IMG/VR virus record: IMGVR_UViG_3300036806_000187
Location: 1-35,251 of that record
Source of the DNA: a virus
Strand: one strand, 5' to 3'
DNA: 35,251 bases
Positions 7,652 through 11,463 of the stretch are shown here, piece by piece. The stretch's first letter is position 1, and the number at the start of each line of letters is the position of its first letter. The notes under the pieces were generated by a model. It was not told the origin of the DNA, did not search any database, and worked only from the letters and a program-made list of their open reading frames with translations. A program made the translations under genes and the position numbers.

Positions 7652-7671
7652 ATTTTTATCAGTACAAAGAA

Positions 7672-7818
7672 CTCAATCAGCCTAGGTAATGGTTGAGAGG
7701 CTAATCCCGACGGCCATAAGCGGAAGTAAATCTTCTGGGGGACTGCGACAGTCGGCAGTAGTAGAGGCTGTGGGAGGGTGAGAGGCCCTCTTATATTTAC
7801 TTTGGCCGACGATATTAG
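7672..7818 (+). ncRNA. Structured RNA of unrecognised class
   Basis: A 264-bp gap without a convincing gene (7652-7915) is clearly more G/C-rich than its neighbours and folds well by eye. CTCAATC (7672-7678) pairs with GGTTGAG (7691-7697). A long helix is built from CTAAT/ATTAG (7701-7705 with 7814-7818), CGGCCA/TGGCCG (7711-7716 with 7803-7808) and AAGTAAAT/ATTTACTT (7724-7731 with 7795-7802). It encloses GACTG-CGA-CAGTC (7741-7753) and GAGGG/CCCTC (7774-7778 with 7786-7790). I see no tRNA, tmRNA or RNase P signature and no obvious group I core. It may be a leader element of the following genes or an independent phage RNA; strand is assigned from neighbouring genes. Confidence 0.6.
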
Positions 7819-7873
7819 GTCTTACTCATAATAAAGCAGCAATTAACTGTCCTAAAAGAGCCAGCGCCGACCG

Positions 7874-7910
7874 TGAGAAAATAGGCCGCCATTATCTCAT
7901 TATTTTGAGG
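7874..7910 (+). promoter_or_regulatory. Possible alternative-hairpin switch at a ribosome site
   Basis: TCTCA (7895-7899) can pair upstream with TGAGA (7874-7878; the stem extends by AAT/ATT past one mismatch). Its CTCA part can instead pair downstream with TGAG (7906-7909), which is part of the GAGG ribosome site of the next gene. The two pairings exclude each other, as in riboswitch expression platforms. Pairing is seen; switching is inference. Confidence 0.4.
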
Positions 7911-10698: not shown

Positions 10699-11463
10699 TC
10701 AATAATAATCATCTTTATCGTATATTTTATAAACATCACTAAAATGTTCCCTTAAAACTTCAGCATCATGACTTTTTGAATAAGTGCCGCGAAGATTCAT
10801 GATATTATCAACAGATACATAATTAGATTTTCTAGGTCTACGATAAGATGTTAGTGGGTCCCCATATCTTACAGTTCTCTGATAATGCTTATCGCACATG
10901 CCTTTTGATCTGGCAAGATTTTCACAATCATCCACATCACATACTCGTTTTCCATTCCCTTGAAGTCGTGTAGAAGGAATTTTTAATACAATTTCTCTAT
11001 AATGTTTATAGCAATACCCTTGAGTACGTTTATTAGCAGTACAGCCATAATGTCTGCATTCTTTTCTAACTAATATCTTTGGCAATAATTCAGGAGTGCC
11101 GTTAGCCATCCATCGAGTATAATGTTTTAGGCAATAACCCTTGCATTTGTAAGGTTCTTGGCAATCTTTCACAGAACATTTTTTATCATTAGGCGCTTTC
11201 TCTCGTGGGATTGCTTTATGAGGGGCACCATATTTCGTTATTTGATTATAATGATTAGAACACCATCCTTTTGCCCGATGAGCATTCGTACATCCTTCAA
11301 AGGAGCATTTTCTATCGGATTTATGCAATCCTTTGGCTTTAGATCCCCCTAGTTTTCCTATAACATGAAGTTCTTCACCATTATTCCACATATTGTAATG
11401 AACCTTACAATATCCTTTTGCGACGTGCTTCCTATCGCAACCCTGAAATGTACATGTTTTCAT
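10699..11463 (-). CDS. Protein of five tandem zinc-knuckle repeats
   Basis: A 254-aa basic protein made almost entirely of five repeats of the pattern C-x4-C-x(6-7)-KG(Y/W/M)C-x2-HY, at about residues 4-23, 53-72, 95-114, 136-155 and 175-194; four are followed by a short G-x-P or similar turn. Each repeat supplies three Cys and one His, predicting one zinc each. The repeat resembles the KGYCxxHY elements often attached to phage HNH nucleases, but no HNH core is present. The last 55 residues lack repeats. Nucleic-acid binding is the simplest inference. Confidence 0.65.
   Translation of the reverse strand: MKTCTFQGCDRKHVAKGYCKVHYNMWNNGEELHVIGKLGGSKAKGLHKSDRKCSFEGCTNAHRAKGWCSNHYNQITKYGAPHKAIPREKAPNDKKCSVKDCQEPYKCKGYCLKHYTRWMANGTPELLPKILVRKECRHYGCTANKRTQGYCYKHYREIVLKIPSTRLQGNGKRVCDVDDCENLARSKGMCDKHYQRTVRYGDPLTSYRRPRKSNYVSVDNIMNLRGTYSKSHDAEVLREHFSDVYKIYDKDDYY

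What the first reader, a model, noticed from the sequence alone, without database searches (positions are those of the whole stretch)
7672..7818. Unclassified structured RNA in the accessory region
A G/C-rich island in a low-GC genome forms nested complementary helices: 5+6+8 bp in the long arm, a 7-bp hairpin before it and two hairpins within. The lengths and nesting are hard to expect by chance, no protein frame fits, and I cannot match it to known classes. It may be a phage-made regulatory RNA, a decoy or a ribozyme.
Basis: partly seen in the sequence, partly recalled or inferred. Interest (0 to 1): 0.78.

Follow-up and report, generated by a model that had tools for sequence, protein, structure and literature searches.

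The report
New tRNA-linked phage RNA family
The window holds a member of a previously unnamed family of small, intricately folded phage RNAs that often sit directly behind tRNA genes and appear to pair with a second copy of themselves; the fold is supported by many compensating mutations, but what the RNA does is still unknown.

Summary
The RNA runs from about 7668 to 7792 on the + strand. A covariance model built here finds 38 copies (37 distinct) in IMG/VR phage contigs; no Rfam family reaches its cut-off. The conserved structure has hairpin P1, helices P2 and P4 whose loops form two pseudoknots (P3, P5), and hairpin P6 with a strict T-loop signature. Of 1061 pair cells 96.9% are paired; 25 of 29 pairs carry double compensatory changes; 0 of 500 shuffles match. 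Two features stand out. The P1 loop carries a self-complementary hexamer that switches repeatedly on the tree yet stays palindromic, implying a kissing-loop homodimer. In 12 copies the RNA starts at the 3' end of a tRNA gene (Asn, Tyr, Met, Pro, a Leu-like one); six more start at a tRNA relic or tRNA-like end. Best reading: a discrete trans-acting phage RNA, released by tRNA maturation and working as a dimer, like a small counterpart of GOLLD and ROOL. Target, transcription and host are untested.

The parts
7668..7792 (+). the RNA as defined by the conserved model R1 (about 125 nt here, 106-150 nt in relatives)
   Evidence: model match 103 bits, E 1e-25, positions 1-129; window and L002 are 93% identical over this stretch with no comparable flanking match
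7672..7697 (+). P1 hairpin, 8 bp: 7672-7679 with 7690-7697
   Evidence: all 8 pairs have double compensatory changes, 95.1% of cells paired
7681..7686 (+). self-complementary hexamer CCUAGG in the P1 loop, proposed kissing-loop dimer site
   Evidence: 20 of 26 distinct loops hold a 6-nt palindrome against 3.2 expected, maximum 9 in 5000 shuffles; all 3 pairs covary; repeated switching on the tree
7699..7715 (+). P2: 7699-7701 with 7713-7715, enclosing the 5' strand of P3
   Evidence: 91.0% of cells paired; extended in some relatives (GGGUU/AACCC, GGAAU/AUUCC)
7705..7742 (+). P3 pseudoknot: 7705-7708 with 7739-7742 (UCCC/GGGA here)
   Evidence: all 5 family pairs covary, 96.8% paired, although P3 was not in the model used for alignment A4
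7721..7737 (+). variable hairpin with GUAAAU motif between P2 and the 3' strand of P3
   Evidence: sequence; absent in short members such as L003 and L018
7743..7758 (+). P4: 7743-7746 with 7755-7758 (CUGC/GCAG)
   Evidence: 99.3% paired, 3 of 4 pairs covary
7748..7771 (+). P5 pseudoknot: P4 loop 7750-7753 with 7766-7769 (6 bp here, 7748-7753 with 7766-7771)
   Evidence: all 4 pairs covary, 99.3% paired; not in the model used for alignment
7774..7790 (+). P6: 5-bp hairpin with 7-nt T-loop-type loop (UGNRANN)
   Evidence: 99.5% paired, 4 of 5 pairs covary; loop U, G and A invariant in 38 of 38
7799..7893 (+). second, separate element directly 3' of the RNA; not part of the conserved family
   Evidence: nhmmer match to L071 7970-8067, E 2e-6

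Best explanation
A phage-encoded, discrete, trans-acting non-coding RNA of 106-150 nt. Shown: a conserved double-pseudoknot core with a T-loop hairpin, a self-complementary P1 loop in most members, same strand as terL wherever a terL is in reach, non-conserved downstream genes, and a unit that can be shared while its flanks differ. Inferred: (1) it is transcribed as the 3' tail of a tRNA, or inside a tRNA cluster, and its 5' end is freed when the tRNA 3' end is matured; (2) two copies pair through the P1 loops into a homodimer; (3) the T-loop hairpin and stacked pseudoknots form a rigid platform that binds a target in trans. Given the tRNA neighbourhood, the likeliest target is the translation machinery or a tRNA-directed host nuclease, where the RNA would act as a decoy. 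Step 3 is a guess. In effect it would work like a much smaller counterpart of the GOLLD and ROOL phage RNAs.
For: Covariation: 96.9% of 1061 cells paired, 25 of 29 pairs with double changes, 0/500 shuffles, slid controls 34-44%; 97.3% on a MAFFT alignment not fitted to the structure. P3 and P5 were not in the covariance model, yet are 96.8% and 99.3% paired. Homodimer: palindromic loops in 20 of 26 distinct loops against 3.2 expected, covariation 0/500, 14 state changes on a tree built without the loop. tRNA junction: an ARAGORN tRNA ends within 1 nt of the RNA start in 12 copies of at least four isotypes; tRNA relics or tRNA-like ends in 6 more (read by eye); L033 has a tRNA-Pro starting 5 nt after the RNA. 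L091 carries a divergent tandem copy starting at a tRNA-Met end. Trans action: of the window's neighbouring genes tested, none lies directly downstream of the RNA across relatives; RNA 93% identical between window and L002 with unrelated flanks.
Against: No transcript data. No tRNA next to the window's own copy. One clade (L012, L021, L024, L026) and L032/L110 lack the palindrome, so dimerisation is not universal. The palindrome covariation rests on few rare states. The target and host are unknown. Several relatives have an ORF starting 25-60 nt downstream, which a leader RNA would also show. Sub-threshold similarity of the 3' part to Twister-sister and Ocean-VII, and the cross-match to a cobalamin riboswitch, leave other functions open.
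Confidence: 0.6

Rival explanations
1. A cis-regulatory leader or riboswitch that senses a ligand and controls the next gene.
For: Compact pseudoknotted core with invariant loops; P6 plus the AGGGA stretch resembles the P4/L4 part of a cobalamin riboswitch (model R1 hits one in L125 at 35.8 bits); some relatives have an ORF starting shortly after P6.
Against: No conserved downstream gene among those tested; RNA sits between two tRNAs in L033; no Cobalamin match in the family members scanned to E 10; in the window the next ORF is 124 nt away; no conserved expression platform seen.
Confidence: 0.15
2. A packaging RNA like phi29 pRNA, assembling by loop-loop pairing on the terminase motor.
For: Same strand and 0-4 kb upstream of terL in all 19 loci with both; self-pairing loops.
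Against: Close terminase relatives lack it in the DNA held (L004, L005, L007, L009, L023, L036, filters off); it behaves as accessory cargo in a variable region.
Confidence: 0.07
3. A self-cleaving ribozyme that separates itself from the upstream tRNA.
For: Sub-threshold full-length Twister-sister alignments in seven records, best 23.1 bits, E 3.8e-5; double pseudoknots occur in known ribozymes; exact junction with tRNA ends.
Against: All below the 34-bit cut-off; the closing P1 helix of Twister-sister would use non-conserved flank and has mismatches; 8 of 14 control genomes also ring at that lax E limit; the matching GCAAGG is not conserved (GCGACAG in the window).
Confidence: 0.08
4. The first reader's nested long-arm hairpin is the functional fold, at least in this lineage, as an alternative conformation.
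For: Duplex energy -23.5 kcal/mol, z -3.75 in the window and z -2.3 in L002, -2.5 in L014, -2.9 in L032.
Against: Most of the 28 loci show nothing; it is incompatible with P2 and P3; each case pairs different sequences.
Confidence: 0.05

Closest known systems
GOLLD and ROOL RNAs (PMC12286853)
   Same: phage or prophage encoded, near tRNA islands, pseudoknots, homo-oligomers built partly through kissing loops, non-coding, function unknown
   Different: those are several hundred nt and form nanocages; this one is 106-150 nt, often starts exactly at the tRNA end, and does not match their Rfam models
T4 stable RNAs rnaC and rnaD (species 1 and 2)
   Same: small stable phage RNAs in a tRNA cluster; rnaD starts 2 nt after the tRNA-Arg end
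   Different: model R1 finds nothing in the T4 stretch (L090); rnaC carries a tRNA-like T arm
Ocean-VII RNA (RF03092)
   Same: AGUA..AGGGAUC.GAG followed by a hairpin; aligns full length with the 3' end of many members, best 18.2 bits, E 3.1e-5; marine carriers show a P1-like hairpin and a GUCAC/GUGAC pairing that swaps in L114
   Different: far below the 53.5-bit cut-off; its long-range helix looks nested rather than pseudoknotted; loop differs; P4 and P5 not recognisable
Cobalamin riboswitch (RF00174), P4/L4 part
   Same: GGGA followed by a short hairpin with a UGNAA loop
   Different: the later helices and closing helix of the riboswitch are absent; no Rfam Cobalamin match in scanned members
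Twister-sister ribozyme (RF02681)
   Same: GCAAGG...CG and the GGUG.AAGCC hairpin in some members
   Different: closing P1 helix not supported; score below cut-off
phi29 pRNA
   Same: loop-loop self-assembly, near terminase genes (comparison from general knowledge)
   Different: no homology found; not universal among close terminase relatives

Membership tests
New family proposed here (model R1) | six helices P1-P6 with two pseudoknots, supported by compensatory change | tested here: met
   25 of 29 pairs, 96.9% of cells, 0/500 shuffles; window 103 bits
New family proposed here (model R1) | self-complementary P1 loop | tested here: met
   window CCUAGG; 20 of 26 distinct loops; not met in 6 of 26
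New family proposed here (model R1) | tRNA 3' end directly upstream | tested here: not met
   frequent in the family (12 of 38 with a tRNA, 6 more with a relic or tRNA-like end) but no tRNA in the window; so an association, not a defining feature
GOLLD / ROOL | match to the Rfam model | tested here: not met
   no family at gathering cut-off in the window
GOLLD / ROOL | homo-oligomer in solution | not testable with these tools
   only the covarying palindrome supports it
Twister-sister ribozyme RF02681 | score above cut-off of 34 bits | tested here: not met
   best 23.1 bits, 0 of 38 over cut-off
Twister-sister ribozyme RF02681 | closing helix P1 around the cleavage site | tested here: not met
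   non-standard pairs at that helix in L069 and non-conserved flank
Ocean-VII RF03092 | score above cut-off of 53.5 bits | tested here: not met
   best 18.2 bits, 0 of 38 over cut-off
Ocean-VII RF03092 | common descent with this RNA (shared 3' module and order of helices) | tested here: inconclusive
   R1 gives only 9.5-11.4 bits in Ocean-VII carriers
Cobalamin riboswitch RF00174 | match of the Rfam model to family members | tested here: not met
   no match to E 10 in window, L069, L071 or L094
T4 rnaC / rnaD | sequence or structure similarity | tested here: not met
   no R1 match in L090
phi29-type packaging RNA | required by the terminase of its phage group | tested here: not met
   not found near terL in close terminase relatives

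The most novel reading that the evidence does not exclude
A widespread class of small phage RNA machines is born as the 3' extension of tRNAs, cut free by tRNA maturation, and works as a kissing-loop homodimer. Different lineages keep changing the palindrome so that only sister copies pair. The marine Ocean-VII RNAs, so far known only as a 41-nt hairpin motif, would be the 3' end of distant members of the same class.
Probability: 0.3. Interest if true: 0.85.

Novelty: new variant of a known kind. Interest (0 to 1): 0.72.

Why it matters
Phage tRNA islands are known to carry stable RNAs of unknown function (T4 rnaC and rnaD, GOLLD, ROOL). This adds a family with a well-supported secondary structure that is small enough for crystallography, in vitro assembly and genetics. 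It gives a sharp testable link: tRNA 3' maturation would make the RNA 5' end, and a single hexamer would control dimerisation. It may also explain an orphan Rfam family (Ocean-VII).

Tried and rejected
Long arm 7711-7731 with 7795-7808 as the functional fold: not conserved. Known Rfam family: none at cut-off in the window, only sub-threshold hits. Close DNA relatives in named phages or plasmids: none. Protein neighbours as a way to homologues: none for the adjacent ORFs; the large terminase worked. Bacterial genomes: 6 pattern hits in GTDB contigs judged chance; 369 genomes of the class of G003, 385 of the class of G001 and 395 of the phylum of G004 gave no family member; L112 and L126 look like coding sequence and L125 is a cobalamin riboswitch. 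Host by terminase: no hit. Pattern hits L073, L099, L100, L106, L108, L109, L121, L123, L124 are judged chance. Promoter and terminator scan: not above chance. A gene specific to carriers: only lineage-level correlations, so not interpreted. Literature on this RNA or Ocean-VII: nothing in the held library.

Full report
Observation. The window is a viral contig (IMG/VR record) with P22-type portal and terminase genes. It is G/C rich and not covered by a + strand ORF. Rfam gives nothing at cut-off. Folding energy alone is unremarkable (z about -1.9 to -2.0), so the claim could only be settled with homologues.

Finding homologues. DNA searches in named phages and plasmids found none. Searching viral contigs with the large terminase gave 65 loci, and nhmmer found 18 loci with E below 0.01 upstream of it. 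Pattern scans and a covariance model, R1, raised this to 38 copies, 37 of them distinct, 16 of them not used to build the model. The window scores 103 bits.

Structure. On the MAFFT alignment of 22 sequences, 97.3% of pair cells are standard and 19 of 29 pairs have double changes. On all 38, 96.9% of cells and 25 of 29 pairs, with 0 of 500 shuffles reaching the observed values on any measure and slid controls at 34-44%. The pseudoknots P3 and P5 were not part of the model that made that alignment, yet are 96.8% and 99.3% paired, for example UCCC/GGGA in the window, AUUAUCC/GGAUAAU in L018, GUUGC/GCAAC in L077, GAUAA/UUAUC in L030. Frequent G-U pairs point to RNA rather than DNA structure and to the + strand. 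P6 has a 7-nt loop with invariant U, G and A and a purine before the A in all 38, the T-loop signature; this label rests on general knowledge of that motif.

The long arm. It uses bases of P2 and P3, and its 3' strand lies outside the conserved unit. In L071 the downstream stretch is conserved but its would-be partner has changed.

Dimer loop. The P1 loop holds a perfect 6-nt palindrome in 20 of 26 distinct loops (3.2 expected, maximum 9 in 5000 shuffles). The sequence differs between lineages (CCUAGG, CCAUGG, GCUAGC, CGUACG, CUAUAG), all three pairs covary, and on a tree built without the loop at least 14 changes of state are needed. A hairpin loop cannot pair with itself in cis at this spacing, so pairing between two copies is the simplest explanation. 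Exceptions: the clade L012/L021/L024/L026, L032/L110, and L078 (CCCAGGG).

tRNA junction. In 12 copies an annotated tRNA ends within one nucleotide of the RNA start: Asn (L011, L020, L048), Tyr (L019, L069), Met (L010, L103, L104), Pro (L032, L110) and a tRNA with an 8-nt anticodon loop, probably Leu (L022, L081). L010/L103 and L032/L110 are near duplicates. In L030, L033, L078, L083, L102 and L105 the same place holds an unrecognised or degenerate tRNA 3' end or a tRNA-like end (read by eye). In L033 a tRNA-Pro starts 5 nt after the RNA. L091 has tRNA-Asn, tRNA-Met, a divergent second copy (15.9 bits over the whole model, loop palindrome CUGCAG) and then the RNA, all in a row. These neighbours bound the RNA as a discrete unit about as long as the model. 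The window itself has no tRNA.

Context. In every locus with both, the RNA is on the terL strand, 0-4 kb upstream. None of the window's neighbouring genes that were tested recurs directly downstream of the RNA in relatives. Window and L002 share the RNA at 93% identity over its length, with no comparable match in the 400 bases on either side. Close terminase relatives can lack it. It is accessory cargo.

Comparison. GOLLD and ROOL are phage RNAs near tRNA islands that form homo-oligomers through kissing loops and other contacts, with unknown function (PMC12286853). This RNA is like them in kind, but is far smaller and does not match them. T4 rnaD similarly starts 2 nt after a tRNA, without detectable similarity. 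Twister-sister matches are below cut-off and lack a sound closing helix. A cobalamin riboswitch in L125 is hit by R1 at 35.8 bits through its P4/L4 region, which suggests a shared T-loop module, not membership. Ocean-VII aligns full length, below cut-off, with the 3' end of many members. In its carriers, phages with genes such as ribonucleotide reductase and DNA ligase, the DNA upstream of the 41-nt motif shows a P1-like hairpin and a GUCAC/GUGAC pairing that swaps to GUGAC/GUCAC in L114. This is suggestive of common descent, not proven.

Mechanism. Shown: conserved fold, palindromic loop, tRNA junctions, sharing as a unit. Inferred: release by tRNA maturation, homodimerisation, trans action. 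Guess: the partner is part of the translation machinery or a tRNA-directed nuclease. No expression data exist here.

Noticed in passing
window 7799-7893; L071 7970-8067; L002 about 1160-1215: A second conserved element directly 3' of the RNA (TGGCCGACGATAYTAGG...ATAATAA...AGGCCRCCA), E 2e-6 between window and L071; the L002 likeness is by eye; a pattern scan found no further carrier.
   Followed up: partly
L014 9101-9179, L025 9097-9174, L105 minus 277-206: Another short stem-loop element (TCTGGCCAC..CC...GAACGTACA with complementary flanks); in L105 it starts directly after a tRNA-Gln 3' end. RNAs joined to tRNA ends may be a general habit of these phages.
   Followed up: partly
L094 minus 1841-1727; L022 2692-2779; L007 8060-8136: A further structured-looking element closed by GAUGGUAA/UUACCAUC in L094; also in L007, where R1 finds no copy of the RNA; no Rfam family.
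   Followed up: partly
L091 6745-6893: A divergent tandem copy of the RNA, starting at a tRNA-Met end, with its own loop palindrome CUGCAG.
   Followed up: partly
L113-L120 and L122: The Rfam family Ocean-VII (41 nt) looks like only the 3' end of a longer RNA of about 180 nt with a P1-like hairpin and a covarying long-range helix.
   Followed up: partly
L010 6866-7126, L014 8659-8883, L020 6815-7030, L033 7785-8006 and others: A small protein of about 75 aa (MKDINKMRLGVLRELKNV...) in the same accessory region of 12 of 28 oriented loci; not in the window.
   Followed up: no
window 10699-11463, minus strand: HNH endonuclease with repeated segments just upstream of terL, possibly a homing endonuclease.
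   Followed up: no
L083 minus strand, about 70 nt before the RNA: A tRNA-like sequence ending in CCA with a 7-bp acceptor-like helix (GUGGCAA/UUGUCAC) but no normal cloverleaf, directly joined to the RNA.
   Followed up: no
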